DNA of 64,000 nt from Camellia lanceoleosa (lineage: Eukaryota; Streptophyta; Magnoliopsida; Ericales; Theaceae): positions 139,688,223-139,752,222 of the forward strand of contig CM045761.1 of NCBI GenBank assembly GCA_025200525.1, read 5' to 3'. Below the pieces are notes generated by a model, which saw only the letters and a program-made list of their open reading frames with translations, had not been told where the DNA came from and searched no databases. Numbering within the stretch: position 1 is the stretch's first letter; the number at the start of each line of letters is the position of its first letter. The translations under genes were made by a program, and so were the position numbers. Positions 7,497-60,535 of the stretch are shown here, piece by piece.

Positions 7497-7501
7497 CAAG
7501 C

Positions 7502-22754: not shown

Positions 22755-24060
22755 CAGTGTTTTTTAAGGCGAAAAGCGAACCGAGGCGACAAGGTCACCT
22801 AACGCCTAAGCGCGAGGCGACGAGGCGAGGCGAGGGCTTCATCGAAGCGAGGCGACCAGAAATGATATTTTTTTAAAATTAATGGCATAGACAAAAATAT
22901 AAAGGAAGAGAAATAATTAATTTTTATTTTTAGCAAGGGTTAACCCCCTGAAACTGTCCCATTGTCATTACTAAAATGCTAAGAACTAAATAGACTCATT
23001 TCATATAGGAATTAAACAAAATGTAAAAAATTCTATACGAAAATAAACAAATTAATTAAATTAATTGAATTAAACAAATTAATTGAATTAAAATAAAAAA
23101 ATTAATTGAATTAATTGAATTAAACAAATTAATTGAATTAAAACTGTCCCATTGTCATTACTAAAATGCTAAGAACTAAATAAACTCATTTCATATAGGA
23201 ATTAAACAAAATGTAAAAAATTCTATATGAAAATAAACAAATTAATTAAATTAATTGAATTAAACAAATTAATTGAATTAAAATAAAAAAATTAATTGAA
23301 TTAATTGAATTAAACAAATTAATTGAATTAAAATAATTAATTGAATAACCAAGAATTAAAATAAACAGAAAATTAATTGAATTAATTGAACACAAAAAAA
23401 AAATAATTGAATTAATTGAAAACAAATTAATTTTAAAATAATTGAATTAATTTTAAAAATTAAATTTTGTGAATTTAAAATTAATTTTTCAGAATTAAAA
23501 ATTAATTTAAAAAAAAGAAGAAGTTGACTTTCGATGGTCAGTGTTCTTCTTCAGGTCGAACGAAGTCGAACAGAGAAGAGCAACAGGTGATGAAGTCGAA
23601 GAAGACGAACAGGTGATGAAGTCGAACACAGAAAGGAAGAACCAGATGAAGAAGCAACTCACCTCGATCGACTCGACTTTGGCAGACGCAGACGCAGCCT
23701 TGGCGAACCGATGATGAAGAAGAAAGGAAGAAGACCGGAAGAAGATCGACTTCGGCAAGAGAGCGCATTTATCGACTTCGATCTAGGGTTTGGCTTCGCA
23801 TCTATTTACTAATTAACTTAGTCGATCGAGGGCCCAGATCATTCGAACGAAGTCGAATCAAGGGCCCAGATGGCTCGAAATTAAATCAGGCAAAATACGA
23901 TGAAGCGTCGCTTGACGCCTCACGCTTCATCGCCTAAGCCTCGATTCAGCGCCGACCGCCTTGCCATTTCGCCTCGCCTCAGGGAGCTTGAGGCGCTGAA
24001 GCCTCGCCTCGCCTCGCTTAGCGCTTAGGCGAGCGCTTAGGCTCGCCTCTGATAACACTG
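22755..24060. mobile_element. hAT-like non-autonomous element (1306 bp)
   Basis: A perfect 8-bp duplication AGTGTAAC lies at 22747-22754 and 24061-24068. The ends are CAGTGTTTTTTAAGGCG and the inverse of TGATAACACTG, giving inverted CAGTGTT termini. Both ends carry dense GCGAGGCG / CGCCTCGC repeats, about 100 bp on the left and 180 bp on the right. The middle holds a 190-bp tandem duplication, an AATTAATTG-rich region, and a GC-richer segment at about 23500-23800 with many GAAGTCGAA motifs that may be captured DNA. No transposase. It sits in the 3' flank of WAK pseudogene 1; the empty site is seen at about 56130-56150 next to WAK pseudogene 3. Confidence 0.85.
22951..23330. repeat. 190-bp tandem duplication inside hAT element
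   Basis: Two near-identical units begin AAACTGTCCCATTGTCATTA at 22951 and 23141. Each ends with a run of AATTAATTGAATTAAA-type repeats, which continues degenerately to about 23470. Confidence 0.85.
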
Positions 24061-24068
24061 AGTGTAAC

Positions 24069-27000
24069 AATCATCAATGAAGTTGTTATCATCATGGACA
24101 AACACAAAACAATCAAATCACCTCCCACCATGCAATAGCATCTCTTCCACCATCCTATCAACCCCAGCTGTTGTTGTGTTTTGCTTCTATAACCTCCAAC
24201 TACATATCCAGTTGATGCCTTACCAAGCATGTTCTCAGTCTCTGCATAATTCAAACCATTTTTAGATATCTTTTTCCTGATCAACCCCTCCAGTTCCATC
24301 GGTACTTCCTTCATAGAAGGCCTTTCCTCCCCTTTTACTCTCAAGCATCTCTTTGCAAAATTATCAACTTCTTTGAGCTCCTCAATGTTTCCTTCAATTA
24401 CCATGTGTTCATCAATAATTTGGTTCAAGCAATCATTGTTCATACAAGTAATAAAATACATAGCCAGATTTCTCTCCTCTTCTGGCCTGTTGAATGACAA
24501 TGCCTTCTTTCCAGTGACTAACTCTACAAGGACTACTTCGAAGCTATAAACATCACTTTTCTCAGTCAACTAGCTTGTGAGCATGTATTCATGGTCTAAG
24601 TATCCAAGAGTTCCTTGCACCATTGTGGCTAATTGATTTTGGTCCAGTAGAACAAACCTTGATACTCCAAAGTCCGACACTTTTGCAGTGCAATAATTGT
24701 CAAAGAGTATATTTGTAGACTTAACATCTCTATGGATGATAGGAATCAACGCTGCAGAGTGCAAATATAACAGTAGTCTAGCAGTTTTTGCAGCTATTCG
24801 CAAACAATTTTCCCATGATATATTAGATGCCTTGCTTTGGTTATGTATATGCTCAAAGAGAGTGCCATTGGTGATGAATTCATAGACAAGTAAAGGGACT
24901 TGAGTTTCCAAACAACAATCTAAGAGTTTGACCACATTCCTGTGATTGATCTGTGAAAGCACGACCACCTCGTTGATGAATTGCTCTATTTGACTTTCAT
25001 CCACCATTTGGGATTTCTTGATAGCCACTATCTTGTTTTCTGGTAGAATTTCCAAAACCTCCTCGGCTAGCAATTCTACTTTCATCATAGTTGTTGGTAG
25101 CCCACTTGAGCTCTTCTGAAGTGAAGATTTTGATCAATTCTCGTATCGGTTTGTCTTGTCTAGAGAGTTGTTGCAACATCAATCCACCATTCTGCCTAAA
25201 GAATTGTTCTCTAAGTTTGATAAGCTTTCTTTTCCTAAAAATCCAGTACAACCAAGAGACTCACCAAAACAACTATTCCACTAACGGCGAAACCTACATT
25301 TCAAATTAGTCATTTTTTTTTTTTAACAAAGATTGCATCTGGCAAATATTTTGGTTTAAAAGAATCAAAATGAAGGATTGCAAGAATTTTATACTAGAAG
25401 AACGCAACAGTTAATCATTGAATGATCCCAATTATATGACAAATCAACGTACCTATATGATTGGGTGAAAATTGAATACAAAGGTGATACCATGCGTTAT
25501 CAGGGACATGTGATATAACCAACCAATAAAAAAATTATATGAGGGATGAACCATTTTTTAGGATGCCACATATACCTAGCAGGAAAAATAGCAATTATTG
25601 ATTGGATAATGATACCATGTCATTGGTATCACGGTTATGTTCAATTTTTTTTTTTTTCACTATATGATCTCAGTTTTAACTTAGTGAACTGACTTTTAAC
25701 TTAGTGAACTGACTTGTAAACCAATGTAGAATCATGTATTGACTCGAATGAATAATGTGTACACAAGAAATTAAATGCACACAACAAATAGACAACACCC
25801 AAAGACTATAGGGGAAGCAAGTATGGGATGCTGCTATGTTAAAAAATATGCATTATGCATTTATGATTTCAACTGACAATGACATTATTAGTTCGAACAA
25901 GAAAGCCACACTACACATGATCCAAGTATTTCACACACACACACACATATATATACACACACTTACCAACCACAAGCTAAATCACCAGAAATCGACCAGC
26001 AGTGCAACCATTTCCATCTATTCTGCCATCGCCGTGGTATCCCTTGGGGCAAGAACACGTATAATTTCCTGGCGTTTTAACACATTTATTTTTATGTTCA
26101 CACATATTGACATTTGGATATTCACAAATATGTCTGCAAAACAATCAAAAGTGGCTCCTATTAGGGTAGCACCAAAAGTAATAGGTAAATGATATTAGTC
26201 ACTTGAGTTTCACTATTTTATTTCATCTCTTATATGTATTCATATAGTAATAAAATTTGTGTGTACATATAGAATGCATAATATATGGGGAAAAAAAAAA
26301 TAATGGAACCTACCAATACCATGACATGGAAAATCACAAAAGAAGTGCAAATATTTTAAAAAATATTCAGATGGCATATAATCAAAAGTAAATGAATCCA
26401 AACATGATGAACCTATTAATTAGCTTGGCAACCATCTAAGAGGTACAAGTTTCCTTGGTAACCTGGCAAGCACTTGCAAATATAACCACTAGTGCTAGGA
26501 CCATGGTCTGGCTTATAACAATCACTATTTTGCCCCACATGCATAACTCATTTGATTTCTTTTACCCTCTTCGCACGTAAAAATATTACTCCTTATTGTC
26601 CAATCAAGCACCATAGGCATATTTTCTTCACTAAAATTACCGAGGTAACTGCTGGAAAAATTAAATGCACCATCTTCAACAACAAATGCATAACTACAGG
26701 GATTAAAGACGAATACCTTCCTATGAGCGGTGAAGCTACCCATGGAAATGTCTGCATGTGCCCCTTCGTTTGGGAGGGAGGTTTGGCAACGCCCAATTCC
26801 AGAGCAATTTCCATCGGGAACGTAGCCACGTGTGCTACATGCCGACACACACCCAGTTGTAATGAAATAATTGTGTGCTACTCCAGAAACTTGGATATTT
26901 GCACTTGTGTCACAACCAATAGCAATGAACTTGTTTTTGGTATTAGATATGGTGAATTTGGGCAGCTCGAGCGATGATTTGAGGTTGCTTTGTAATGGTG

Positions 27001-27367
27001 TACCTAACTGGTCATAACAATCATGAGATATTGACTGCATGATACGTAACTCACCCTCCTCGAGTAATATATCTGAAATAGTGATATTGGTCTTCCCAAT
27101 GTATGGCTTGGACTGATTACAGGTAATGAGGAAACCTTCTTCCAAATAACAGTTCTCTTTCAAGCCGAATGGGTATGGGATGCTTACATTTCCGCAAAGG
27201 TCCGTGCAGCCAAGATTTTTCAGATCTGCAATTGTTGGTGGTGCTGCAACTGCTGATGACAAAATCATTACCAGAACTACTACTATCACGATGAGTTTCA
27301 CTAGCATTGCTTGTGAGGCCATGGCTGGCTTGTTTCCAGCTTTCACTAGCATTGCTTGTGAGGCCAT
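24069..27367 (-). pseudogene. Wall-associated kinase-like pseudogene 1
   Basis: It has the same three-exon plan as the intact gene at 39407-42288. Exon 1 (27367 to about 26424) encodes a signal peptide, an extracellular GUB_WAK domain (CTDLCGNVSIPYPFGLKENC) and the start of an EGF repeat. Exon 2 (26133-25967) is an EGF-Ca exon. Exon 3 (from about 25300) holds the membrane segment and kinase. I see these lesions: a 1-bp gain at about 26530 giving YACGAK-stop; the exon 1 donor changed from GT to CT at 26422-26423; a net loss of 4 bp in the start of exon 2 and a TAG at 25977-25979; a 2-bp loss at about 25260; a 14-bp loss at about 25050 that removes part of the glycine-rich loop; and TAG for a conserved Gln at 24570-24572. 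The HRDVKSTN catalytic loop and DFG are still readable. Its C-terminus is frameshifted and a hAT lies just downstream. Clearly nonfunctional. Confidence 0.92.
25967..26133 (-). pseudogene. EGF-Ca exon of WAK pseudogene 1
   Basis: The acceptor TTTTGCAG and the donor G|GTAAGTG are both preserved. Between them, [17 protein letters not shown] and [14 protein letters not shown] are readable. A shortened start shifts the frame and a TAG interrupts the end. Confidence 0.8.
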
Positions 27368-27392
27368 GGCTGGCTTGTTTCCAGCTTCTTGG
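27303..27392 (-). repeat. 45-bp in-frame duplication at the WAK pseudogene 1 start
   Basis: Two perfect or near-perfect 45-bp copies at 27303-27347 and 27348-27392 duplicate MASQAMLVKAGNKPA, which puts two in-frame start codons before the signal-peptide core (LIVIVVVLVMIL). Confidence 0.8.
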
Positions 27393-27555
27393 CAACCGCT
27401 TTGCTGTGTTCAAGACCATAGAAATTCATTGGAACAATATGTAAACAAATTCATTAGGGCTATGTACTTGCATGGTCCAAAAATAAAATAAGAATAAGAT
27501 GAAAAATCACAAAATGCTATTGATTGGGCACACAGACGTGTGGTATTCTAGAAAA

Positions 27556-28110
27556 CTAGAATTTCTGCCTCATAACAGAACATAGTTTTTTGTTTTTTGA
27601 CCGGCAAGTTGTGAGTAGTAAAGTCCTACAAACTCCATCTCGACACACCAAATTTACTAAATTCTGATTCACCTCTGCCCATTTGGTCTCCTGTAATAAT
27701 GCAAAATCAGCTTCCCTTGCTGCAAGTAACCTAATTTCTCTCCTTGTCTCTAGTTTTCCCAATTCCATGAAAATAACTTCATTGAAACAAATAGGCAAAC
27801 ACCCTTGGTGCAATAGTGCACTCAGAACTACTCATCAGCCCCTTCCTTTTCAAATAACCTCATCTCATTTTTCTACATTTGACCAATCCTACCCAAAGCT
27901 TCCCTTCTACCATCACTAAAATCCAAATCCAACATCTTTTACCAATTTCTAACACTGATTCTGCATCTTCCCTAATCAGCCTAATCCCTTTATGAATGTT
28001 CTGTGAAGAAACTGATACATTCACGTTACCCTCCTTTCTCTTTGTCTTGCCTTTCTTCCTCGTCTTACTATACTTTCCACCATTACTAGAATCTAGAGAA
28101 GTCACTGAAA
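27556..28110 (-). mobile_element. LINE (L1-type) ORF2 5' fragment
   Basis: On the minus strand MKLFSWNW is followed, after a one-base shift, by LETRREIRLLAAREADFALLQETKW. This is the start of an apurinic/apyrimidinic-type endonuclease of plant L1-like retrotransposons, with SWN and the QETK metal-binding motif. Upstream at 27860-28105, a lysine-rich GKYSKTRKKGKTKRK stretch resembles the preceding linker. No reverse transcriptase is present. The fragment abuts the promoter side of WAK pseudogene 1. Confidence 0.65.
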
Positions 28111-28309
28111 ATAAGATAATCAGTTACCCAAAAATTATCAACAAATCATTTTAGGTGAATTTCACTTTTTATCTTCTAAACTATCACCATTTTTTTATTT
28201 TTTATTATTTGATCTCTATACTATCAATTTAATCCATTTAGTCCCTAAATTTTTGGATTTATCTTCATGTCATCTAATTGGAGATGATTGTACAAATTAG
28301 TAACTTTTG
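28111..28309. other. Intergenic DNA
   Basis: AT-rich. Contains phrases such as GAATTTCACTTTTTATCTT and CCATTTAGTCCCTAAATTTTT that resemble terminal sequence of Mutator-type MITEs, but no complete element is visible. Confidence 0.35.
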
Positions 28310-28744
28310 ATTTCCTACCTCAAAAGAGAGTATTAGAACCTTGTTAGGAAACTTTTTTGAGCGAGGCAATCTCGCGAGGGAAGTTGTGAACCAAAAGGAA
28401 ACTTGTAGGCGAGAAAAGATGTGGAAAGAAAAGGGAAAGTTGCAATAGGAGAGAAGACGTGGGAAATTAGGGATGCTCGCGGTTCGGTTGCGGTCGGAGA
28501 ACTTTCAATTTGTCATTCATCGCCTGGATTGACGGATTGAAAAAAATCAATTCACATATGTCTGCCGGATTGGCGGATGTGAATTAAGCGGATTGATAGA
28601 TTAGCGGATAAATGCGAATTGGTTTAGCGGTTTAAACTTTTATAAATTTTGTAAATAATATAACAACTTGTCAACATTTTATTTATTTATTTATAACAAT
28701 CCAACTCAAGAGAACCAAAAGATTATCAAGTAAATTGTTAACAA

Positions 28745-28880
28745 AAATGTTAGACTCCAAAAATTTTACTAAAAATTCTACCAATTGTCTCACATGGTTG
28801 TGGGACCCACATGGGACCCACATTGTGTGGGTCCCATACCCATGTGAGACATTTGGTAGAATTTTTGGGGTCTGTAGCAT
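28745..28880. mobile_element. Foldback hairpin / MITE remnant
   Basis: AAAAATTCTACCAATTGTCT followed by CACATGGTTGTGGGACCCACATGG is mirrored by the reverse complement of GTGTGGGTCCCATACCCATG and AGACATTTGGTAGAATTTTT. The arms are about 55 bp with almost no loop. It is absent from the corresponding place in copies 2 and 3, so it inserted after the triplication. Confidence 0.65.
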
Positions 28881-31745
28881 TACTGAATTGTTAAATACTA
28901 ATAATAAATACACATAAGAAAATCATTGATTATCAAAACTATTTCATTATGTTTTTTATTCAAAAATTATTTAATTTGATTTTTTTTAAAAAATGACAAA
29001 ATTAAGGCTTATATTTTCTACGCAAAAATATCAAATATCAACAGTTTTGAAAACACAACAAAATATTTAAATTCTTTTTTAATTGAAAACACAAACGTAA
29101 TATTTAAACAAATCAAAAATATAAAATTTTATAAATTATTAGAGCTGCTTACGGTTTAGTAATTTGATTGTGGATAAAGAAATCTCAAATTCACTATCTA
29201 TTTAAAATTAAGTGAATTAAAAAAAATCAATCTATAATCATGTGTTCGTTATTATACATTCGTTTAAAATATGATGAATCAACTCCGTTCGATTGATTTA
29301 GACGGGTCAAAATATCACCTAATGACCCTATGGAAAATTTGTGAATGATTTTACTGGACGGACTTTTCTTCTTACTTATGGAGAGAGAAGACCCCAAGTC
29401 AGCGTTGCATTAAAGAAAGACCCTTTACAATCAAAATTTAAAAAAATGAAATAATTGAAAGGTTCTGTAAAAAATTTAAAATAAATAATAATAAATAAAT
29501 AAAAGAGGTGAGAGATTCTGTGAAGTTTCTAGTCATTATGATTGACTTCCATCTGATGATGAGGCCAAAAAACTTGAGTCAATTGTTGATTGCGTAGTGT
29601 CTGACACAACCCTCATGAGGAGGGTCCAGGATATGTGGATTGCTGCCTTTTGGGACCCTCCAAATTTATTATTCACCAACCATGTACATAATAATCCTCT
29701 CCATTCTAACCCACTTTTAATGCAAAAATAAATTATATGAAAAAATAAAGTACAAATTACATTAAAAAAAAAAAAAAAAGTTTCAAAGTTTCACATGTTT
29801 TGCAAATTAAACCTCAAAATTTTAATTTTAACAATTTAAATATTATATTTTAAATCATATAATCAAATACCTATTAAATTGGTTGTGGGGTATAATTTGT
29901 TCAAATTAAATATAAAAAAAAAATAAATATTTTTGATATGGCAAGTTGTTCAAATTCTAAAATAACAATTTTTTTTCCCCCATCAAAATAGGGTTCACAA
30001 TTATTGATTTGTATAGTCATTGAATCACATTAACAGAAATTTAAACTTTATGAACTAAATATACCAAAAACCATAATCTAAGGATAATATAGGAAAAATA
30101 GCAATTGTAGATGCTTCAAAATCGCTCAAACATTAAAAAAAATAAAAATAAATAAAATCAAAACAGAAAAACAAAAAAATCAAAAATCAAAAATCAAAAA
30201 ACTAATAAGGCAATCCAATAACCATAATCACATCAATGAAACAGTATAGATGCCTGCCTCAAAAGAGAGTATTAGAACCGTGTTAGGAAACTTTTTTGAG
30301 TGAGGCAACCTCAGGAGGAGGGAAGTTGTGAACCAAAAGAAAAGTTGTATGGGGAAAAGGTGTGGGAAAGAAAAGGAAAGTTGCAATAAGAGAAAAGATG
30401 TGGGAAATTAGGGGTGTTTTGCAGTTCGAATGTGGGCGGAGAACTTCTAATCTATCATCCATTTGCCGGATTGACATATTAAAAAAAATCAATCTGCATC
30501 CATCTGTTAGATTGGCAGCTAGGAATTGAGCAAATTGATGAATTGATGGATGGATGCGAATAGGTTTGACGGTTTAGAATTTTACAAATTTTGAACATAA
30601 TATAACAACTTGTCAACATTTTTTTTTTGGATAACAATCCAACTCAACATAACCAAAAGATTATTAAGTAAATTGTCAAATACCAATAATAAATAAATAT
30701 AAGAAAATCATACATTATCAAAACTATTTCATTACTTTTTTTTTTTTAATTCAAAAACTATTTAATTTGATTTTTTTTTTTAAATCACAAAATTAAACCT
30801 TATATTTTTTACACAAAAATACCAAATATCAACACTTTCCATTTGATAAAAAGATTTTTAAATTAAAAACACAACAGAATATCTAAACTCTTTTTTAATT
30901 GAAAATACAAACAGAATATTTAAAAAATTAAAAATACAAAATCTTACAAATTATTAGGGGTACTTGCGATTTGGTAATTTTATTGTGACAAAGAATCTCA
31001 AAATGATCATCCGTCTAAAACTAAACAAATTAAAAAAAATCAATTTGTAATTGTCCGTTCATCGTCTCAAGGGGGGGGGGTGGTTTGGTTTGGTTTGTTT
31101 GTTTACTTTTCTGGTTACTTATGGAGAGAGAAGACCCCAAGTCAGCGTTGCATTAAAGAAAGACCCTTCACAATCCAAATTGGAAAAAAAATGAATTGAA
31201 AGGTTCTGTAAAAATAAAATAGAATAAAATAAAAAAGAAAAAAAACAGATGAGAGATTTTGTGAAGTTTCTAGTCATTATGAGTGACGTCCATATGAGGG
31301 CAAAATACTTGTCAATTGCTGATTTTTGTGTAGTGAACACAATCCCCAATAGGAGGGTCCAGGATATGTGTGGATTTAGAGATGCAATCGGAAACTGACC
31401 TGACGGGGACCCAATCTCTCGATCCTGAATTCAGCAGTTATTTTTTGAAAAATATCCCCGACGGGTTGGGAATGATATTAAAAATTGAATCCCCGATGAC
31501 ATTTGGGCCGAGGACAGGGATATCTGTTTCAGCCCCGGACCCGTCCCAGCCCCAACCGCGGGCCCGATCCCCGCCCTGCTTGCCCCCCGACGTGAAATGA
31601 CTATTTTGCCCCTGGCTATATATAACATGTGTGTGTGTGTTTTAGGGCTTTGGCTGAACAGAACACACACACAACACAAACACAAACCCAAAGCCGTCCT
31701 TCCCTCTCTCTCTGCTCTGTCTCTCTATCTCTAGGGTTTTGTCTT

Positions 31746-31747
<2 letters not shown>

Positions 31748-31787
<40 letters not shown>

Positions 31788-31822
31788 CCTCTCTCTCATA
31801 CACACACACACACACACACACA
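31748..31822. repeat. (CT)n and (CA)n microsatellites
   Basis: A CTCTCT run with a few T insertions to about 31796, then CA repeats to about 31822. On the minus strand this lies directly downstream of the captured ENT coding sequence. Confidence 0.9.
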
Positions 31823-32064
31823 ACGACGGCGTCGATGAGGGAGATGACGCCGACGACCATGTAGGCGACGGAGAAGATGCGATTGACGGAGGCGTCAGGG
31901 TAGAGGTAGGAGAAGTAATCGACGGCGGTGATGAAAGCGTTCTAGGGGAGGAGGTAGCCGGTGCCGAGGGTGAAGTAGATGCGGTAGGCTAAGTGGAATG
32001 AGTCTTTTGGGATTTTCTGGGCTTGGATGAGAGAGATTGACTCTGAATCGCCGATTTGAAGATC
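31819..32064 (-). pseudogene. Captured N-terminal piece of an equilibrative nucleoside transporter (ENT) gene
   Basis: Reading on the minus strand from 32064, one frame gives DLQIGDSESISLIQAQKIPK, then DSFHLAYRIYFTLGTGYLLP, a TAG stop at 31942-31944, NAFITAVDYFSYLYPDASVN, and RIFSVAYMVVGVISLIDAVV. This matches the first membrane helix and following loop of plant ENT proteins, which move nucleosides across membranes. The family has LLPWNAF, so the stop is TGG to TAG at the conserved Trp. Only about 80 codons are present, ending at the microsatellite. The fragment sits inside a hAT-like element, so it looks like transposon gene capture and not a local gene. Confidence 0.75.
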
Positions 32065-32504
32065 TGTTGGTGTTGTGTTGGTGTTGGTGTTGTGATCTGT
32101 TGATGTTGTGATCTTTTTTATTTTATTTTTTATTTTTCTAGAGCTAATTTCTTTTGAAGATTTGTTGGTAATGTTGTATTTGAGCTCAAGTGGGTTGTTG
32201 ATGGTAGGGATTTTTTCAAATTAAACGATCCCCCGAGAAGTATGGTGGTTTTCGTCGGGGATCGGTAGGGGACGAGGGAAGTTCTGCGATCGGAGATCGG
32301 GGACGGGGATGGTGATCCCCGGGCCCGCCCCGTCCGTTGCCATTCAAAAATATAAAATCTTACAAATTATTAGGGGTACTCGCGGTTTGGTAATTTTATT
32401 GTGACTAAAAGAATCTCAAATCCATCATCCGTCTAAAACTAAACGAATTAAAAAAAATCAATTCGCAATCGTCCTTTCATCATCTCAACACCTTTATAAA
32501 AAAA

Positions 32505-35500
32505 GGGAGCTTTTTTGATAAATCCATTTTCTAAGAGCTTTATTCCATCCAACCCATATTCTTTTTGACTATTCCATTAGGTCCAATTTGAGATAAGAAG
32601 ACCAAAATACCCTTTTCATCTACTTATGTTCCATTTAGTTTACATTATTTTCTCATATTTCAATAAGTCCTATTGGTGATATAATTACCAAAATACCCCT
32701 AATGTGAATGTTCACACCGTCAATGTGAATGTTCATATCGTCAATGTGTAGGGGCCCGGCCCATGTTGATCCTCGTGGGTGCCCGGAAAAATTCGAGTCG
32801 GGCCGGGCCGGCCCACAGGCCAAAAAAATAGGCCCGGCCCGGCCTGTTGATAATGTGAATATTCACATTGACAAGTTAACATTCACATTGATAAGAGTGT
32901 AAAATTGGCCTCGGGCGTGACCATCGCCTTCGCCCGTCCGCTCATAATGTGAATATTCACATTGACATATCAACATTAACATTGATAAGAGTGTAAAATT
33001 AGCCTGACCCGAATTGACGGCCGACCGGCAGTCAGGCCGGCAGTTGACAATGTGAATATTCACATTGACATATTAACATTCACATTAATAGGAGAGTAAA
33101 ATTAACCCGCTGACCGTGGTGCGACGAAACCCGCCCACAGTGGGTTTCATGGCGGGCGGCAGTGATAATGAATATTCACATTGACATGTTAACATTCACA
33201 TTGATAAGAATATAAAATTAGTCCGCGCCCGTGGTTCAAAACCACCCGCCCGTGGGTGGGCAAAGGCGCGGCGTCTGTTGTCAATGTGAATATTCACATT
33301 GTCATGTTACCATTCACTTTGATAAGAGTGTAAAATTGACTCGCGTCCGTGGGGCGGCCGGCCGTTGACAATGTAAATATTCACATTGACATATTAACAT
33401 TCATTGATAGGAGTGTAAAATTGGCGTGGCTGGCGCGGGCGGCTTGACTTCCGAGGCGGGCTCGGGTTCGTCGACAATGTGAATATTCACATTGACATAT
33501 TAACATTAACATTAATAACAGTTTAAAATTGGCCTGTGACCCGTGGGCTGAAGCTGGCCCCAGTCGGTAGGTTAGGCGGCTGCCGTTGACGCGTGAATAT
33601 TCACATTGACGTGTTAACATTTACATTGATAAGAGTGTAACATTAACCCGTGCCCCGTGGCTGCCCGACACCCGCTCACGGACCGTGGGCGGCCCGAGTC
33701 AGGCCCGGCCCGGCCTGTTGACAATGTGAATATTCACATTGACATGTTAACATTTACATTGATAAGAGTGTAAAATTGACTCGCGTCCCATGGGCGGCGA
33801 GTTTGCGGCCGGGTTTGAGCTCTGGGCGAACTTCTGACAATGGACAAATTTTACTTCTATCACTGTTAGTGTTATCATGACAATGTGAATATTCACATTG
33901 TCACGGTCGCCAAGCCCGCCGAGTGATGCGGCGGCCGCCACCAGCCGGGCCAATTTACACTCCTATCAATGTGATTGTTAACATGTCAATGTGAATATTC
34001 ACATTAACGGGTCCGCCCGGTCGGCTTCCGGGCCATCCACGGTCATGGGTCAATTTTACACTCTTATCAATGTGAATGTTAACATGTCAATGTGAATATT
34101 CACATTGTCAACAAAGCCGCCAGCCCTCCCATGCCGCCCCGTGCCGCGGGCGGGCTAATTTTACACTCCTATCAATGTGAATATTCACATTGTCACGGGT
34201 CAGGCCAAGCCCGTCTCGGGCTTCGGTCGGGCTTCGGTCCGCCCATGGGCTGCAAGCCAATTTTACACTCTTATCAATGTGAATGTTAACATGTCAATGT
34301 GAATATTCATATTGTTAACGGGCCGGGCCAGCCCCGGGCCGCGGGCGGGCTTTTGGCTGCCCATGAGCTGCAGGCTAATTTTATACTCTTATCAATGTGA
34401 ATGTTAACATGTCAATGTGAATATTCACATTGTCAACGGCCGACCGCCGCCCATGCATGGCGAAGTTCGCGCCACCACGGGACGGGGGCCAATTTTACAC
34501 TCGTATTAATGTGAATGTTAATATGTCAATGTGAATATTCACATTGTCAACAGGTCGGGCCGGGCCGGGTCGGGCCCGCCCTGGACTGCTTGCTAATTTT
34601 ATACTCTTATCAATGTGAATGTTAACATGTCAATGTGAATATTCACATTGTTAACCCACGGCTCGATCAGCACCGCCCGTGGCGGGTTTCGGGTAGCCAC
34701 GAGACGCGTGCTAATTTTATACTTCTATCAATGTGAATGTTAACATGACAATGTGAATATTTACATTGTCAACGGCCGGTAAGACATTGGCGAACTTTTG
34801 GTCGCCATGGGTCACGGACTAATTTTATACTTTTATCAATGTGAATGTTAACATATCAATGTAAATATTCACATTATCAACTAATCGGACCGGGGCGCCC
34901 CTGTGCCATATGGCGGCGAGTGTTTCGTACACCACGGGACGGGGGCCAATTTTACACTCGTATTAATGTGAATGTTAACATGTCAATGTGAATATTCACA
35001 TTGTCAACGGGCCGGCCCGGGCCGGGTCGGGCCCGCCCTAGGCTGCTGGCTAATTTTATACTCTTATCAATGTGAATGTTAACATGTCAATGTGAATATT
35101 CACATTGTTAACAGGCCGGGTCGGGACCGCCCCGGGGCGCCCAGGGGCCATGGGCGGGTTTCGGGTAGCCACGAGATGCGTGTTAATTTTACACTCCTAT
35201 CAATGTGAATGTTAACATGTCAATGTGAATATTCACATTGTCAACGGGCCGGGCTGGGCCCACCCGGGGCCGCTGGCGGGCTTTTGGCCGCCCATGGGTC
35301 GCGGACTAATTTTATACTCTTATCAATGTGAATGTTAACATGTCAATGTGAATATTCACATTGTCAACAACCGGACGGGGCATACTGGCCGCCATGGGCG
35401 GGATTTCGCCCCGCACCGGGCGGGCCAATTTTACACCTATTAATGTGAATGTTAACATGTCAATGTGAATATTCACATTGTCAACAGGCAGTTTTCGCCG

Positions 35501-35777
35501 GCAAGTTTCAAGTACATCGGCCAATTTTATATTTCTACCAATTTGAATTTTAAAATATAAATTTTCACATCATTAAATTGCTAATCCTTCAAAAAATATT
35601 TATAAGGGTATCAAAATTGAATATAAGGGCATAAGTGTCCAAGAAAATAGTGTAAATCAAGAAAATGGACTTTATGGAATAAAACTATACATACATGGGA
35701 TTAAATGGGTTAAAAAATTTCTTCATAGACTTCTTGAGTTAAAACACTTATAAATTGAATTTATCAATAAAAATCCC
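32505..35777. mobile_element. Mutator-like (MULE) element filled by an inverted palindromic array
   Basis: The 3273-bp element is flanked by a perfect 9-bp duplication ATAAAAAAA (32496-32504 and 35778-35786), the Mutator length; the A-rich sequence weakens the call slightly. Its terminal inverted repeats begin GGGAGCTTTTTTGATAAATC on the left and GGGATTTTTATTGATAAATT on the right complement, and continue imperfectly for about 150 bp (TTTATTCCAT, TCCATTTTCTTGA, ATTTTCTTGGACA). The empty site is visible in copies 1 and 2 of the surrounding triplication. There is no transposase. Almost all of the interior is the repeat array described separately. Confidence 0.8.
32852..35530. repeat. Array of palindromic modules alternating with GC-rich variable segments
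   Basis: About 24 modules occur every ~110 bp. The ~63-bp consensus contains AATTTTACACTCTTATCAAT, then GTGAATGTTAACATGT, then the perfect 20-bp palindrome CAATGTGAATATTCACATTG and TCAAC. Between modules lie 45-60 bp GC-rich segments full of CCCGGCC, GGGCGG and CpG, with different sequences. The modules at about 32852, 32945, 33049, 33163, 33281, 33369, 33475, 33590 and 33723 run in one direction. Those from about 33880 to 35463 run in the other, with a damaged junction at about 33785-33880. One module (about 34155) lacks the GTTAACATG half. No open frame persists across units. It is not CRISPR: the host is a plant, the repeat is too long and variable, and the spacers recur. Confidence 0.85.
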
Positions 35778-36630
35778 ATAAAAAAAATTTATGAATGATG
35801 TTACTGTTTTTTTTTTGGGGGGGGGGGGGAGGGGTGGTTAGTTTGTTTGTTTGTTTACTTTTCTGGTTATTTTTCTGGTTACTTATGGAGAGAGAAGACC
35901 CCAAGTCAGCGTTGCATTAAAGAAAGACCCTTTACAATTCAATTGGAAAAAAAATGAATTGAAAGGTTCTGTAAAAATAAAATAAAATAAAATAAAAAAG
36001 AAAAAAAAAAGGCGAGAGATTCTGTGAAGTTTCTAGTCATTATGATTGACGTCCATATGAGGGCCAAAGACTTGTCAATTGCTGATTTTTGTGTAGTGAA
36101 CACAACCCCCAAGTGGAGGGTCGAGGATATGTGTGGATTGTTCCCTTTTGGGACCCTCCAAATTTATTATTCACCGCCCATGTCCACAATAACCGTCTCC
36201 ATTCTAACAAAATTTTAATGCAAAAATAAATTATATGAAAAAATAAAGAGCAAATCACATTTTTTTTTTTTCTTTTAAAAGTTTCACGTTTTTTGGTAAA
36301 TTAAATCTTAAAGTTTCAATTTTAACAATTTAAATTCTATATTTTAAATCATATAATCAAACACCTATTAAATTGGTTGTAGGGTATAATTTGTTCAAAT
36401 TAAAAAGAAAAATGAATATTTTATGATATGATAAGTTGTTCAAATTCTAAAATAACAATTTTTTTTCCCATCAAATTAGGCTTTGCAATTATTGATTTGT
36501 ATAGTCATTGAATCACATTAATAGAAATTAAAACTTTTAAGAACTAAATATACCAAAACCAAAATCTAAGGATGAAATAGGAAAAATAGCAATTGTTAAG
36601 GGATAAAAATGCTTCAAAATCACTAACATT

Positions 36631-36640
<10 letters not shown>

Positions 36641-36666
<26 letters not shown>

Positions 36667-37460
36667 AAAAAGAAAAGACTTATTTATAAGTCTTTTTCGA
36701 ACACTTATGCTAGATTAAGTCCTGTATAATTTCTTATAGAGTCTCAAGTCCTATTTAGATAAGAATGTATTCTACAAGATCCTATGAATTGACCATATAT
36801 AGGAAATTGAATGTTACTATAGAAAATAACATTTTCACATTCAATTAAAAAAAACGAAAACCTAGTAAGTTTGTGAAACGTAACGTGACACGTTACGTTA
36901 CGTTTATGTAGGTGTCACGTCACGTTATGTTTATGTAGGTGTCACGTTACGTTTCGTAAACTTAATCTATGGTAACATTCAATTTGCTATATAGGAAATT
37001 GAATGTTACCATAGAAAGTAACATTTTCACATTCAACTAAAAAAATCAAAAACCTATTAAGTTTGCAAAACATGGTAACATTCAATTTCCTATATAGCAA
37101 ATTGAATGTTACCATAGAAAGTAACATTTTCATATTCAATTAAAAAAATCAAAAACCAAGCAAGTTTGCGAAACGTAACGTATATAGCAAATTGAATGTT
37201 ACCATAGAAAGTAACATTTTCACATTCAATTAAAAAAATCAAAAACCAAGCAAGTTTGCGAAACGTAACGTAATACGTTACGTTACGTTTATGTAGGTAT
37301 CATGTCACGTTACGTTTATGTAGGTGTCACATCACGTTACGTTTATGTAGGTCTCAAATGTGTCAACAAACTTCACATAGGACTTATGGAAACATAAGTT
37401 TTTTTGTAGGACTATATATAGCAAAAGTCTCCCTAATAGGACTAATAAATAATTTTCTCA
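36641..37460. mobile_element. Inverted-repeat element with palindromic tandem array (Mutator-like, tentative)
   Basis: Between A-rich tracts, the left end (GACTTATTTATAAGTC, ATTAAGTCCTGTATAATTTC) and the right complement (TTATTTATTAGTCCTATTAG, GTCCTACAAAAAAACTTATG) are loosely inverted. The interior (36790-37370) is a ~100-bp tandem repeat described separately. Target duplication cannot be read in the A homopolymers. Confidence 0.5.
36790..37370. repeat. Palindrome-rich ~100-bp tandem repeat
   Basis: Each unit has three parts. The first is a ~40-bp near-palindrome with arms GGTAACATTCAATTT and AAATTGAATGTTACC around TATATA (36970-37010 and 37075-37115, with half copies at about 36790 and 37180). 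The second is AAAGTAACATTTTCACATTC followed by AAAAATCAAAAACC. The third is an ACGT-rich segment with CGTAACGT..ACGTTACG palindromes (about 36878, 37260). TTTATGTAGGTGTCAC recurs every ~30 bp at 36903-36950 and 37288-37350. Confidence 0.75.
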
Positions 37461-38418
37461 AAAAAAAAAAAGTTCAAAACTATAAAAAAATCAAAAATAA
37501 AAAAAAAATCAAAAACTAATAAGGCAATCCAATAATCATAATCACATCAATCGAAGAGTATAGATGCCTACCTCAAAAAATCCATTAAAACATTTTTCTT
37601 GGCTTGCCGTGTTAAGAACTATCTTGAGTGATGCACAGAGGTAAAAAAGGCACACCAAGTGTATGATAATATGATCGAGAGAGTGTAAGAATGGTTGATT
37701 GGCTTGGTTTTGTCACGAATTTGCAAGACTCTTTTCCTCTCTTTTCTGTGTCTCCTTCCTCAAAAACTGTTTCCTAATCCTTTGTTGTTCAAAATGTATT
37801 TTCCAGAGGTTATTTGAGACTATACAATTGTTATGAATTTATTATTGTTTTTCTTAGATTTCCAGGTTAGAAAAAGATTAAACTACTTTCTAGGTTACCT
37901 TTCAACAATCTTCAAATTTGGAACGTCAGTGTTTACCGTAGAAACAAATTGTATAATTTCATATTTTTTGAGTTATAATTAAAATAAAAAGAAAAAAAAA
38001 TCATAATTAAACAACACATAAGATACAATTAAAAATTTTATGAGTCATAATTAAAGAAGAAAATTAATTACAACTAAAGAAGAAAATAATATAATTTAGG
38101 AGTGCATACGATAGGAGTGTGTATAATAAAATTCTCCCTTCAAATTATTATTACTTAAAAAAAAAAAAAATTATTTGTATTTCTCAGATTACACATGACA
38201 AAAAGATTGATCAAGTAGCTTGCCGGACTTGACTTCTTTCCGATTTGCTTTATATATATATATATTATAGTTACGCCCTTCACCAGATAGTCCAGTTTTC
38301 TTTGAGTGCGATGCATTTCTTACTCATCTACTAGACACTTACCTAGAAGATCCTTTCCTCTTCTCTCTTTTTTTTTTTTTCTTTTCAATTATTTTTTTAT
38401 TTTTATAATTATTATTAT
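37461..38418. other. Intergenic; remnant resembling DNA upstream of the WAKL gene
   Basis: AATCACATCAATCGAAGAGT followed by ATAGATGCCTACCTC at about 37540 is similar to 43207-43250 (upstream of the intact WAKL gene) and to 30213-30260. CTTGGCTTG and TTTGCAAGACT recur downstream in the same order as at 43300-43375. This suggests leftover 5' flanks of lost WAK copies. No exon is seen. Confidence 0.45.
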
Positions 38419-38830
38419 TTGAGATAAATTACACAATTGGTTCCTATAATTTTATATAAATTTCACTTTAGTTTTTGTAATTATAATTTTATCAATTTTG
38501 TCCATATACTTTTCATTTTGATTCCAACGTACTCCATCTATCATTATTTGTTGCTGGTCCAAAAAAAAAAAAAAAACTGTCATTATCTGTTAATATTCAA
38601 ATGGAAAAAAAGAAAAAGAAATGACAATTTTTATTTTATGAGAGGGAATTGTTAACATGCATCTGTCAATGAAAATGTTAGTTTTCTATGCAAAACAACA
38701 ATGACAAATGACAGTGGGATCGTATTAAAATGGATATGAAAATATGATATTTAAATTGTTGAGATTAAAATTATGAAAATTAAAGTGAAATTTTGTTCAA
38801 ACTATAGAGATCAATTATGTAATTTACCAT
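38419..38830. mobile_element. MITE with long terminal inverted repeats (~410 bp)
   Basis: The left end has GATAAATTACACAATTGGTTC, CTATAATTTTATATAAATTTC and ACTTTAGTTTTTGTAATTAT. The right end on the complement has GGTAAATTACATAATTGATC, TCTATAGTTTGAACAAAATTTC and ACTTTAATTTTCATAATTTT. The arms match over about 70 bp. No coding sequence. Target duplication not resolved. Confidence 0.65.
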
Positions 38831-39406
38831 TCTCCCTAATCCTCTATTTAGTTTGGGCCGTAGGTCAACCACGGAGCCTCATTTTAATGATTTGATCTAT
38901 TAATTTTATTGGTGTATAAATCATTCATAAAAAAAGTCAGATTGATAATCAAACAATTTGTTTCAAAATTATACTTGTCATCTATTTCAGTGAAGACAGA
39001 TATGATAATTTCATATTACTATAATTATCTAATCAATTTAATTTTTCATGAATAGTCCACATACTGAGATTAAAAGATCAACAGATCAAATCACGAAAAT
39101 AGGACTCAGACCAAACTAGCCCAATCCACCTAGCGTACAAGAGACAAACCCAACCACCAAATCAACTCTTAGTTGCACTCCATCAATTTATAATTACTGT
39201 CATCACTTGTTATTTATTTATGAAATTATTCCTATATATATTGATGTATTTGAATAATAGATTACAATAATAAAAAATTACATATGAAAATGTAAATTAA
39301 ACCGAAACGATCTAATGTACGCACATAATTTTACAAAACAGAAAAGACAGTAATAACAAACCATCACCTAATTTGTTATCATTGTGGACTCAACAGTACA
39401 AAAAAA
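38831..39406. other. 3' flank of the WAKL gene
   Basis: AT-rich with no recognisable gene. It lies downstream of the minus-strand stop at 39407-39409 and probably includes the 3' UTR. I could not fix a poly(A) site. Confidence 0.4.
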
Positions 39407-42288
39407 TCACCTCCCACCATCCATTGGCAACATCATATGTTCCCTCACACTATCGTACCCAATTGTTGTTGTGTTACTACTACTAGTAGTACAATCTAAC
39501 TCAAACCCACTTAGCTTCCCACCAAGCAAATGCTCACTCTCTTCACCATTCAAATCAATTTTAACCCATGGATGCTTCTTCATCTTTTTGTTGATCAACC
39601 CCTCCAATTCCATTGCTACTTCCTTCATAGTAGGCCTTTCCTCTCCTTTTACTATTAAGCACCTCTTTGCAATATTAGCTACTTCTGTGAGCTCCTCAAC
39701 AATTCCTTCAATTTCTATTTGTTCATCAATAACTTGGAACAATCGATCATTTTTCATACAGGAAAGAAAATACCTAGCTAGACTCCTCTCCTTCTCTGGC
39801 TTGTCAAATGACAACACCTTCTTTCCGGTGATTAGCTCCACAAGCACTACTCCGAAGCTATAAACATCACTTTTTTCTGTTAATTGGTTTGTGAGCATGT
39901 ATTCAGGGTCTAAGTATCCAAGAGTTCCTTGCACCACTGTTGCTAATTGATCTTGGTCTAGTGGAACCAACCTTGATGCTCCAAAGTCAGACACTTTTGC
40001 AGTGTAGTTATCGTCTAAGAGTATATTCGTAGACTTAACATCTCTATGAATAATAGGAACTGATGCTGCAGAGTGCAAATATGACAATACTCCAGCTGTT
40101 TCAGCAGCTATTCGCAACCGATTTTCCCATGACATATTAGATGCCTTGATGTGGTTATGTATATGCTCAAAGAGAGTGCCATTGGTGATGAATTCATAGA
40201 CGAGTAAAGGGACTTGAGTTTCCAAACAACAACCTAAGAGTTTGACCACATTCCTATGATTGATCTGTGATAGCACGACCACCTCATTGATGAATTGCTC
40301 TATTTGACTTTGATTCATAATTTGTGATTTTTTGATGGCCACTGTTGTGTTATCTACTAGAATTCCCTTATAAACTGTTCCAAAACCTCCTCTACCAACA
40401 ATTCTATTGTCATCATAGTTGTTGGTAGCCTGCTTGAGCTCTTCTAAAGTAAAGATTTTGATCGCTTCCCGAGTCGGTCTCTCTAGTCTAGAGAGTTGTT
40501 GTTTCAACATTAATCCACCATTCTGCTTGAAGAACTTTTCTTTAAGCTTCATGTGCTTTCGTTTGTTGAAAATCCAATACAACCAGGAGCTACTCACCAA
40601 AACAGTCAAAGCACCCATGGCAATACCTGTATTTCAAATAAGTCATTTTTAAGTAACAAAGACTATAAACATCTTGCCAATAGATTGATTCGAAACTAAG
40701 CATAGTAAGAAAATTATATGACTCGAGATATTAATATAAAAAAATGTCATGTAAACTTACAAATTTTACAAAAAAATTTTATTACTACTAATGTAACATG
40801 CAATAATAAAACTCTAAAATCTGGAACATACCCATTGAAATAATATGTTATGTATCATATGAGTGAGTAAGATAAATTTGTAAAATTTATTAATTTATAT
40901 GGCATTACCCTATTAATAATTTTAAATATTCTTTCAAGCTACTGGAGTATAAAGGATGTGGATCCAATTGGGGATGTAGGTTGCAAGTAAATTCTTCCAA
41001 ATTCATTAATTATGTGAATTAGGTGTTGTACTTTATTTATTTTACTTTTGACATATATGGCATTACCAATCACAATCTGAAGCACAAGAACTCGACCAGC
41101 AGTGCAACGTGTTCCATCTGTTCTGCCATCACCGTGATATCTCTTGGGGCAAGAGCACGTATAATTCCCAGGCGTGTTTAAGCAGTCGCTTTCCTCTACA
41201 CACTGGTTGAGAGTTGAATTTGCACATTCATCTATGTCTGCAAAACAATCAAAACAGAGGAGGGAGGGCTCAATAATGAAATTAAAGCATCACAAAAGCA
41301 ATATATATAGAATCAAAAGCAATTGAATCCGAACATGATGAATATGAAGCTAGCTAAATGGATACTACTAACCTTTGCAACCATCTGAGAGGTACGCGTT
41401 CCCTTGGTAACCCTCAGAACACTTGCACATATACCCATTATCATTTACTGCTTCAGAACAATCACTATGATTTCCGCATGCATAGCTTGTCAAATTTCTC
41501 TTAGCTTCATCGCATGTCTCATTATCCCCTATTCCCCAATCAAGCACCACCGGCACCATGTCTTCTCCAAAATCATGAAGGTAAGTTGGGGAGAAATTAA
41601 ACGCTCCTTCTTCAACAACAAAGGCATAGCTGCAGGGGTTGAATTCCGATACATTTGTATGATTGAAGAAGCTATACGCAGCAATGTCGATGTTGCTGAC
41701 TTGTTTTGGAATGGAGGTCTGGCAGCAGCCAATTCCAGAGCAAGTTCTGCTAGGAACATCGCCGATGCTGGTACATCGTGAGACACACCCAGTTGCAACC
41801 GAATCACCGTTCATAAGAATGTCTAGATACCCATATGAGTCACAACCAATAACAGTGAATTTGTTCTTGGTAGTAGATATGGAGAACTCGGAAAGGCTGA
41901 GCGATGCTGAAGAAAAATTGCTATGTAATTGTGTACCATTCCCATCATAACACTTGCGAGATACGTAATTCATGATGCCTAACTCACTCTCCTCGAGCGA
42001 TATATTTGTAACATGGAGATTGCCATGCCGTAAATATGGCTGGGAATGGCTACAATTAATGAAGAAATCTTTGCTGAGATAACAATTCTCTTTCACGCCA
42101 AATGGGTATGGGATGTTTAAATTCCCGCAACTGTTCATGCAGCCATGATTCTTCAAATCTGCTTCTGTTGGTGGTGCTGCTTTTGTTGCTGCTGATAATG
42201 AAAATATCACCACCACTACTACTTGTACTAGTACTAGAATCATGATGATGGGTTGTAGTTGCAATTGCATTCCTTGTGAGAAAGCCAT
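39407..42288 (-). CDS. Wall-associated receptor kinase-like protein (WAKL), apparently intact
   Basis: Three exons: 42288-41373, 41237-41067 and 40626-39407. All introns are GT..AG and phase 1 (exon 1 ...TTGCAAAG|GTTAGT, acceptor TTTTGCAG; exon 2 ...ATTG|GTAATG, acceptor AAATACAG), giving 2307 nt and 768 residues. The start lies in a favourable CCATGGC context. Residues 1-36 are a signal peptide. [16 protein letters not shown] (50-65) opens the galacturonan-binding GUB_WAK domain. EGF-like cysteines lie at about 270-304, followed by a calcium-binding EGF (DIDECAN, 306-362). A membrane helix spans about 355-381. The kinase has GRGGFG at 440-445, Lys461 (VAIKK), HRDVKSTN at 556-563 (an RD kinase), DFG at 576-578 and DPEYML; all key residues are present. 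The family sits in the plasma membrane, binds pectin and signals wall state or damage. Neighbouring paralogues on the same strand are broken. Confidence 0.93.
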
Positions 42289-42330
42289 GGCTAGCTTGCC
42301 TCTTGGAAAAAAGCTTTTCTGTATTCAAAA

Positions 42331-53075: not shown

Positions 53076-53410
53076 TGGGATTCTAGGCCATTAATGTTTT
53101 TGATTAAAAATTATTATTGAATTAGCTGAGGTTAATTCATTGAGTTAATAAACCTTATAATTTTATTTTTAAAATCATGACACATGTCATTTATGTGTGT
53201 ATTTTTTTTATTAAAAAATACTAACAGTTGTATTCAATTGACTGAATTGAGACAAAATCATAAATTCAAGGTCAAAATCGAATCAATTGAAATTACAGGG
53301 ATCAAAATAACACAATAATCAAAATACAGGGAATACTAATCAGTGTGTTTGGTTTCAGTTTTTTGAATTCAGTTTTCTGGAAATTTTTGAGTTTTTTTAT
53401 TTTTTGTGTT
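53076..53410. other. Intergenic DNA
   Basis: AT-rich. It includes MITE-like phrases (AAATTACAGGGATCAAAATAAC) without a matching second end. The last ~70 bp resemble the flank left of the solo LTR at 7502 (TTTGGTTTC...CAATTTTC-like). Confidence 0.35.
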
Positions 53411-55087: not shown

Positions 55088-56155
55088 ATATCTTTTAAAT
55101 TATGGCGATCAGGGATGGGTGATGAGGTGGTGAAATAGGAGAGAGGGCTTGCAGCTGCCATAGTTGGGAAGGACGTAGGTGAGCTGTGGTGGAAGAGAGG
55201 TTAGGAGGGAGGAAAAGTAGATCTGAGAGGAAGGAAGAAACTAAAGAGAGGTCTGGTGCCAAAGGTGAGAGAGATTAGGAGTGAGATAGTGAGAGAAGGA
55301 GCAGTGGGAGGGAATTTGTCTAGGTGAAGCAAATCCGAACCGTTGATGGTAAATGACACGTAGGACAAATTTGCCACATTAGACAAAATTCAAAAACCCT
55401 CCTACCTTATTATATAGATATATTTTTTCCTTGTAGAAGTGGCTGCATCTTAATTTTATTGTAAACTCCTTATTCTTGCCTTATATAGACTACCTTACTA
55501 TAAATAAATATATATATATATATATATATATTAAACCAAGTTGGAGCATATATGGGCACCAACCAATCATTTCCTACCACCATCTATAAATTGCCTAAAA
55601 ATATTACACATTAAATCTTATAAACTTACACTTTCATGAAAGATTTAGATCCTCTCTATACATGATTACAATGGAGATTCTCATTACGATGCATATGATT
55701 ACAACATGTCATTAAAATTTAATATCAATGGTCTATAGTTTTATGTTATTTCAAATCCTAAATTTTCTTTGGGAGGTGCAATTTTCACTTGCGTTATATG
55801 AATTTATAATTACTTTTCCTATTTGCCATTTATATATGAAATTCTCCTTATATATCATGAATTATCTGAATAATTGATTTTTTAGAAATACAAAAACTGA
55901 TGTCACAACATGACATTGAATTCATATGGATGGACAAGAATTTCATAACTGAGTCCCACTAACAAATTCTGTAAATTTTATTTGTTTATATGTAGTTTGA
56001 TAAGTCTAGAAATAAAAACATGATACAAAATGATATGAACAGACAAGATTAATGAAGAGTGAGCGAGTCACTAACAAATTTTTACATAAGAAAGTACAAG
56101 AAATTTAAAAGAAGTAATCACCTGTATACAGGTGTGACAATCCATCAATGAAGTT
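55088..56155 (-). repeat. Segmental duplication copy C and 3' flank of WAK pseudogene 3
   Basis: About 55105-55400 matches the leader parts of copies A (17470-17800) and B (22190-22400), with the frame PLFSFFLPLRSTFPPS. An unrelated or expanded segment, including a TA microsatellite at about 55508-55531, follows. About 55780-56150 matches the 3' flank of WAK pseudogene 1. Copy C is joined directly to a truncated LTR, so its left part is lost. Confidence 0.6.
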
Positions 56156-60172: not shown

Positions 60173-60535
60173 CTGGAAAACAATTATAAAAATATATATA
60201 GAAAAAAAAAATAGAGAAGAAGACTATTTGAAAATTAAGCATCATATCATAAGCAATATATAATAACAAAAGAAAATGAATCCAATATGATGAAACTAAT
60301 TGGATACGAACCTTGGCAACCATCTGAGAGGTACGGGTTCCCTTTGTAACCAATCGTGCACTTGCAGACATACCCAGGTCCATTTCTTGATTCATAACAA
60401 TCACTATTTTCTCCACATTCATAACTTTTCAGATTTATTTTACGCTGTATTTGGTTGGGGGATTTAGGGACGGATTTGGAAAGGGAAAGGGAAAGAGAAA
60501 AAGTGTGTGAAACTAAGTGAAATATAGGTATGTTT

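What the first reader, a model, noticed from the sequence alone, without database searches (positions are those of the whole stretch)
32852..35530. Repeat-spacer-like array of palindromic modules inside a Mutator-like element
About 24 modules alternate a conserved ~63-bp AT-rich segment holding the perfect palindrome CAATGTGAATATTCACATTG with 45-60 bp variable segments that are extremely GC- and CpG-rich. This looks like a repeat-spacer layout but sits in a plant transposon with 9-bp target duplication and terminal inverted repeats. I know of no described plant element built this way. The palindromes could extrude cruciforms, bind a dimeric protein, or set nucleosome-scale spacing (~110 bp).
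Basis: partly seen in the sequence, partly recalled or inferred. Interest (0 to 1): 0.9.

Follow-up and report, generated by a model that had tools for sequence, protein, structure and literature searches.

The report
Foldback plant transposon with two-tone array
This looks like a small plant jumping gene whose inside has become two mirror-image rows of one repeated unit, each unit half AT-rich with a palindrome and half very GC-rich; it belongs to a known class of fold-back transposons, but its build is unusual and bears on how CRISPR-looking repeats can arise in plants.

Summary
A 3,273-bp element (32505-35777) with a 38-bp imperfect terminal inverted repeat (30/38) and 9-bp target duplications holds 24 modules. 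Two points were missed. (1) Nine modules run on +, then, from a breakpoint at 33842/33843, fifteen run on -: inverted arms, so a foldback-type, non-autonomous Mutator-like element. (2) The GC-rich 'spacers' are related to one another: they are the fast-changing half of one ~110-bp two-part unit. One protein-database hit (P0001, E 3.4e-10) shows the same layout in a separate 535-bp contig of unknown organism; one of its two linkers matches linker types of this window, the other is undecided. Between block copies, linkers carry two to three times the substitutions of modules and nearly all gap columns. That fits a half-AT, half-GC minisatellite route which the authors of Arabidopsis 'SIRC' cassettes name but call very improbable. 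The palindrome core GAATATTC is a published site of dimeric GARP factors (NIGT1; a form of the PHR1 site): 21 in the element, none elsewhere in the window. Binding is untested. No genome-wide survey could be run. New variant of a known kind.

The parts
32496..32504 (.). left target-site duplication ATAAAAAAA
   Evidence: identical to 35778-35786
32505..35777 (.). whole element, 3,273 bp, foldback-type Mutator-like, no long ORF
   Evidence: ends; longest stop-to-stop ORF 85 aa
32505..32542 (+). left terminal inverted repeat, 38 bp
   Evidence: 30 of 38 identical to the right end; 1 of 5,000 random pairs score as high
32701..32748 (+). short direct repeat, 21-bp period, 2.3 copies, related to the palindrome
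32846..33781 (+). left arm: 9 modules with GC-rich linkers
33782..33842 (.). central linker; strand switch at 33842/33843, first bases of a + module (TGACAATG) joined to the 3' end of a - module
   Evidence: sequence
33843..35485 (-). right arm: 15 modules with GC-rich linkers; M13 (34153-34197) has one palindrome box only
35519..35570 (-). decayed module at the outer edge of the right arm
   Evidence: score 23 against 34-63 for the other - modules
35740..35777 (-). right terminal inverted repeat, 38 bp
35778..35786 (.). right target-site duplication ATAAAAAAA
30930..31376 (+). paralogous segment without the element: left-flank homology ends at 31070, right-flank homology starts at 31071
   Evidence: 90% over 143 and 318 columns; about 54 bp around the insertion site are missing in this copy
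29113..29662 (+). second, more diverged paralogous segment without the element
   Evidence: about 60 bp extra sequence near the site

Best explanation
A non-autonomous, foldback-type Mutator-like transposon of a plant whose interior is an inverted array of one two-part repeat unit. Shown: end repeats, 9-bp duplication, element-free paralogous segments, two opposed arms, related linkers, copying of neighbouring units, and one separate sequence with the same unit. Inferred: the interior began as a 20-21 bp palindromic subterminal repeat like the one still at 32701-32748; two such boxes and a tail became joined to a GC-rich stretch; the unit multiplied by unequal exchange, in part in blocks of about four; part of the array was inverted at a module, giving the arms; the ends are moved by the transposase of an autonomous relative. 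The AT-rich half stays uniform through constraint or through conversion among near-identical copies, while the GC-rich half drifts by substitution and above all by insertion and deletion. That gives a CRISPR-like look without capture of foreign DNA.
For: TIR and TSD. Element-free paralogs. Self-complementary arms: up to 70% over 2,082 columns on the opposite strand; predicted single-strand fold -1587 against -1007 +- 13 kcal/mol for 8 segment-wise shuffles, 788 of 1,123 pairs across the arms. Linkers related. Unit pairs at offset four: M16/M20 and M17/M21 differ at 1 of 65 sites each. Modules 12 of 259 against linkers 28 of 181 substitutions, gap columns 1 against 50 (p 1.5e-4); only the two secure pairs: 2 of 130 against 11 of 89, p 0.002; confident local alignments only: 46 of 648 against 27 of 204 (p 0.009). 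P0001 has module-linker-module-linker-module and a linker matching S08 and S21.
Against: No transposase and no second copy with these ends was found; the host genome was not searchable. The duplication is A-rich and low in complexity. The terminal repeat is short and imperfect. Neither paralog keeps the exact pre-insertion site. Two of the four offset-four linker pairs (S15/S19 score 28, S18/S22 score 33) do not exceed the best shuffled score of 36. P0001's second linker gives no significant match (22 of 300 shuffled sets score as high). The antisense linker comparison is also a little above shuffles (14.2 against 13.45), so part of the linker likeness is palindromic or compositional. The local rate pairs are not independent (S08, S17 and S21 recur).
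Confidence: 0.8

Rival explanations
1. Docking platform: the GAATATTC palindromes bind dimers of a host GARP factor (PHR1- or NIGT1-like), so that transcription or movement of the element, or nearby genes, answers to phosphate and nitrate status. This can be true together with the best explanation.
For: GAATATTC is a published NIGT1-dimer site and a form of the PHR1 site GNATATNC (passages). Present in 21 of 24 modules; 21 in the element and 0 in the rest of the window. The 20-bp palindrome is the best kept part of the module (0.967 against 0.925; p 0.046).
Against: Copying of one unit explains the number of sites. The conservation excess is slight. The wider PHR1 pattern GNATATNC also occurs 10 times outside the element. 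No binding or expression data.
Confidence: 0.12
2. Repeat-spacer system with separately acquired spacers, CRISPR-like in logic; the MULE would take up GC-rich fragments between palindromes.
For: Alternating layout and linkers of 22-68 bp that mostly look unlike each other (mean global identity 52% against 88% for modules).
Against: Linkers are homologous in module orientation, copied together with their modules, and one linker type is shared with a separate array.
Confidence: 0.03
3. Ordinary satellite or minisatellite that happens to lie between chance end repeats.
For: Block copying and unequal exchange are satellite behaviour; the duplication ATAAAAAAA is low in complexity.
Against: Ends and duplication in register, paralogous segments that lack the whole insert, and opposed arms with one strand switch.
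Confidence: 0.08
4. Transposase-binding array: the palindromic boxes are subterminal sites of the element's own transposase and were multiplied because more sites favour movement.
For: Subterminal tandem repeats are reported for foldback MULEs Muta1 and Tm1 (passages); a simpler 21-bp form stands near the left end.
Against: No transposase known for this family; units reach the centre of the element; whether repeats of this kind are bound was not seen in what I read.
Confidence: 0.2

Closest known systems
Foldback MULEs of plants: MuTAnT of Medicago (PMC4486113, passages read) and FARE of Arabidopsis (Windsor and Waddell 2000, not held; known from citing passages)
   Same: Inverted arms built of modules, MULE-type, short non-autonomous members
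   Different: MuTAnT elements are mostly 200-300 bp and target TA repeats; no two-tone AT/GC unit is mentioned in the passages read
Tm1 of root-knot nematodes (PMC3169594, passages and first of two parts of the discussion read)
   Same: Mutator/foldback, 9-bp duplications, composite inverted repeats with varying numbers of an internal repeat, non-autonomous members
   Different: Internal motif about 14 bp; a transposase-bearing member is known; animal host
Muta1 of Aedes aegypti (PMC5225508, passages read)
   Same: Similar size (3,198 bp), 8-9 bp duplications, subterminal tandem repeats with linkers, called a type 2 foldback element
   Different: Encodes a transposase; repeats of 12 bp with 3-4 bp linkers, 145-bp end repeats
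SIRC, short interrupted repeat cassettes of Arabidopsis (PMC10342631; abstract, part 1 of 6 of the text, discussion and detection method read)
   Same: CRISPR-like look, link to non-autonomous transposons, palindromes in part of the repeats; the authors mention a half AT-rich, half GC-rich minisatellite as a possible but very improbable origin
   Different: SIRCs have 2-8 direct repeats of 10-29 bp, diverse spacers and no detectable tandem repeats; here 24 modules of about 65 bp, related linkers, opposed arms
Foldback4 of Drosophila (PMC2955051, passages read)
   Same: Non-autonomous, modular, palindromic extremities, varying numbers of central modules
   Different: Animal family; no AT/GC alternation mentioned in the passages read

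Membership tests
Mutator-like element (MULE) | 8-10 bp target-site duplication | tested here: met
   9 bp, ATAAAAAAA; size range as stated in PMC5225508
Mutator-like element (MULE) | terminal inverted repeats (typically over 100 bp) | tested here: inconclusive
   Ends match over 38 bp, 30/38, significant but shorter than the typical length given; shorter ones are reported there too (2 of 14 mosquito families under 60 bp)
Mutator-like element (MULE) | mudrA-like transposase in an autonomous relative | not testable with these tools
   None in this element (longest ORF 85 aa; element ORFs were not scanned against Pfam); host genome not searchable
Mutator-like element (MULE) | dispersed copies with the same ends | not testable with these tools
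   The genome search unreachable; no plant collection at hand
Foldback element | long inverted arms composed of tandem modules | tested here: met
   9 + and 15 - modules; opposite-strand matches up to 2,082 columns
SIRC | 2-8 short direct repeats (10-29 bp) | tested here: not met
   24 modules of 45-65 bp in two orientations
SIRC | diverse, unrelated spacers and no detectable tandem repeat | tested here: not met
   Linkers related; tandem arrays reported by TRF
CRISPR-like repeat-spacer array | spacers of separate origin | tested here: not met
   Linker homology and co-copying, shared linker type
GARP (PHR1/NIGT1) binding array | GAATATTC / GNATATNC motif | tested here: met
   21 of 24 modules; motif from passages
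GARP (PHR1/NIGT1) binding array | bound by the factor | not testable with these tools
   Needs gel shift, DAP-seq or ChIP

The most novel reading that the evidence does not exclude
The element is a mobile homotypic cluster of 21 GARP-dimer sites (GAATATTC) held apart by CpG-dense GC-rich linkers, and moves as a ready-made nutrient-responsive regulatory array or decoy for PHR1/NIGT1-type factors; the palindrome, not the linker, is what selection keeps.
Probability: 0.12. Interest if true: 0.8.

Novelty: new variant of a known kind. Interest (0 to 1): 0.5.

Why it matters
It shows, in one piece of DNA, how a CRISPR-looking repeat-spacer pattern can form in a plant transposon without capture of spacers: a two-tone tandem unit whose GC half changes faster than its AT half. 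The SIRC authors named this route and called it very improbable; block copies inside this element let it be measured. It also gives a testable lead: a transposon with 21 sites for phosphate- and nitrate-signalling factors near receptor-kinase genes. If both leads fail it is still a variant of foldback MULEs.

Tried and rejected
Separately acquired spacers: rejected by linker homology, co-copying and the linker type shared with P0001. Nucleosome or helical phasing: no support (periods 87-133 bp; R 0.17, p 0.53). Stable hairpins in the linkers: weak, mean z -0.63, standard error 0.25, 25 linkers. Linker change mainly by CpG transition: not supported, 5 of 27 substitutions. Arms as two separate lineages: not supported, nearest neighbour in the same arm for 13 of 22 units, 11.3 expected, p 0.33. 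Known RNA families over 28000-40000: none at gathering score. The exact palindrome in viral contigs: none; in bacterial and archaeal genomes: one site in each of two MAG contigs, not followed up, taken as chance. P0001 in viral contigs: 19 stretches matched a pattern, none confirmed. Two more protein searches with array ORFs: no hit. The string GTGAATATTCAC in papers: 4 papers, none on transposons by title. Transposons tied to PHR1 sites: listing only, no foldback MULE seen among the 12 of 45 shown.

Rows left out of counts: linker homology used 24 of 25 linkers (S00 out); the module conservation profile used 23 of 24 modules (M13 out); nearest neighbours used 22 of 24 units (M09 and M10 out); local rate totals used 5 of 6 listed pairs (S13/S14 out) and dropped comparisons with M13. 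Pfam was run on 8 of the 20 ORFs.

Full report
What is there. The window looks like plant DNA: of 8 ORFs scanned, two carry the wall-associated-kinase domain PF13947 and three others a protein kinase domain. Between the kinase ORFs at 24018-27409 and 39407-42324 lies an element of 3,273 bp, 32505-35777. Its ends match as an imperfect 38-bp inverted repeat (30 of 38), a score that 1 of 5,000 random pairs of window segments reaches. It is flanked by 9-bp duplications ATAAAAAAA. An identical 9-mer pair is found in 1 of 84,681 pairs of the 300-bp flanks. The duplication is nearly all A, so alone it would be weak.

Insertion. The flanks belong to a local duplication. In the segment 30930-31376 the left-flank homology (143 columns, 90%) ends at 31070 and the right-flank homology (318 columns, 90%) begins at 31071, with no element between them. 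A more diverged copy lies at 29113-29662. This supports an insertion. The exact pre-insertion site is kept in neither copy: the first lacks about 54 bp around it, including the duplicated 9-mer; the second has about 60 bp extra, though a stretch of about 23 bp of the right flank is recognisable in it.

The array. There are 24 modules, 9 on the + strand (32846-33781) and 15 on the - strand (33843-35485), plus a decayed one at 35519-35570. The module is GTTGA, the 20-bp palindrome, a second 20-bp box similar to the first, and a tail ATAAGAGTGTAAAATT, followed by GC-rich sequence. The boxes resemble a 21-bp direct repeat at 32701-32748 near the left end. One module, M13, has one box only. At 33842/33843 the first bases of a + module (TGACAATG) stand next to the end of a - module. 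One strand of 32701-35570 is predicted to fold at -1587 kcal/mol against -1007 +- 13 for 8 controls in which each module and linker was shuffled separately; 788 of 1,123 predicted pairs join the arms. This is foldback anatomy.

The 'spacers'. Linkers were oriented with their modules and compared pairwise (24 of 25). Mean local score 16.5; 40 sets of dinucleotide shuffles give 13.45 +- 0.17; best pair 62 against at most 36. The same comparison against reverse complements gives 14.2, best 26, so part of the likeness is compositional or palindromic, but most is not. The best pairs are S14/S22, S08/S21, S16/S20 and S17/S21. Two of these have an offset of four units, and their modules M16/M20 and M17/M21 differ at one site each, which points to copying in blocks; the other two offset-four pairs, S15/S19 and S18/S22, score 28 and 33, below the best shuffled score. 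S08 lies in the left arm and S21 in the right; units do not sort by arm (13 of 22, expected 11.3).

Two speeds. Over the four offset-four pairs, modules differ at 12 of 259 aligned sites with 1 gap column, linkers at 28 of 181 with 50 gap columns (p 1.5e-4). Those linker alignments are forced end to end. With the two secure pairs alone it is 2 of 130 against 11 of 89 (p 0.002). With confident local alignments of five pairs, which favour conserved parts and are not independent, it is 46 of 648 against 27 of 204 (p 0.009). So the GC half changes faster, and takes nearly all gap columns. CpG transitions are 5 of 27 linker substitutions. Whether the AT half is slowed by selection or by conversion among modules is open.

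Beyond the locus. A translated stretch of the array found one relative among 5.77 billion proteins: P0001, 87 aa, from a 535-bp ENA contig, E 3.4e-10. It reads module, linker, module, linker, module, and its best match in the window is 65% over 85 residues, so it is not this locus. Leaving out module-coded residues, linker 1 (18 residues) scores 78 with S08 and 70 with S21; the best of 300 shuffled linker sets is 50. Linker 2 (17 residues) scores at most 33, which 22 of 300 shuffled sets reach. Organism and molecule type are unknown; it could be another copy in the same genome. Two more protein searches found nothing, and the own-genome search could not be reached.

Possible function. The palindrome core GAATATTC is a published site of the NIGT1 dimer and a form of the PHR1 site GNATATNC (passages of PMC7660924 and PMC11082045). 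It is intact in 21 of 24 modules and absent from the rest of the window; the wider pattern GNATATNC occurs 21 times in the element and 10 times outside. The palindrome is slightly more conserved than the rest of the module (0.967 against 0.925; p 0.046). Copying of one unit could explain the number of sites, so this is a lead only.

What it is like. Foldback MULEs are known: MuTAnT (passages), Tm1 (passages and half of the discussion), Muta1 (passages), FARE (not held; from citing passages). This element fits by duplication length and inverted modular arms; its end repeat is short, and it has no ORF over 85 aa. The CRISPR-like look recalls SIRCs of Arabidopsis (abstract, part 1 of 6, discussion and detection method read). 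[quoted passage not shown] They add that this would not explain small inverted repeats inside the repeats; here the palindrome may be older than the unit, since a simpler palindromic repeat stands near the element's edge (inference). Searches for a described element with this combination showed none in the listings and passages seen; the library holds open-licence papers only.

Verdict. Real, and a new variant of a known kind. The transposon reading holds; the repeat-spacer reading does not.

Noticed in passing
36790-37360: A second, smaller array about 1 kb to the right: AT-rich units with inverted words (TTGAATGTTACCATAGAAAGTAACATTTTCACATTCAA) between 27-bp repeats with ACGTTACGTTTATGTAGG. 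Possibly another modular transposon.
   Followed up: no
60535-61275 and 62686-63425: Direct repeat of 741 columns at 98% identity, the most similar pair in the filtered self-comparison of the window.
   Followed up: no
24018-27409, 39407-42324, 56550-57386: Cluster of wall-associated-kinase-like ORFs, similar to each other at 81-85% over more than 1.2 kb; the copy at 24018-25133 is split into two ORFs.
   Followed up: partly
32217-32343: GC-rich stretch (GGGGATCGG.. CCCCGGGCCCGCCCC) that ends just before the left-flank homology to the paralogs starts at about 32344; perhaps a fragment of another repeat.
   Followed up: no
7475-9173 and 53384-55091: Direct repeat of about 1.7 kb at 77% identity, far apart in the window.
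   Followed up: no
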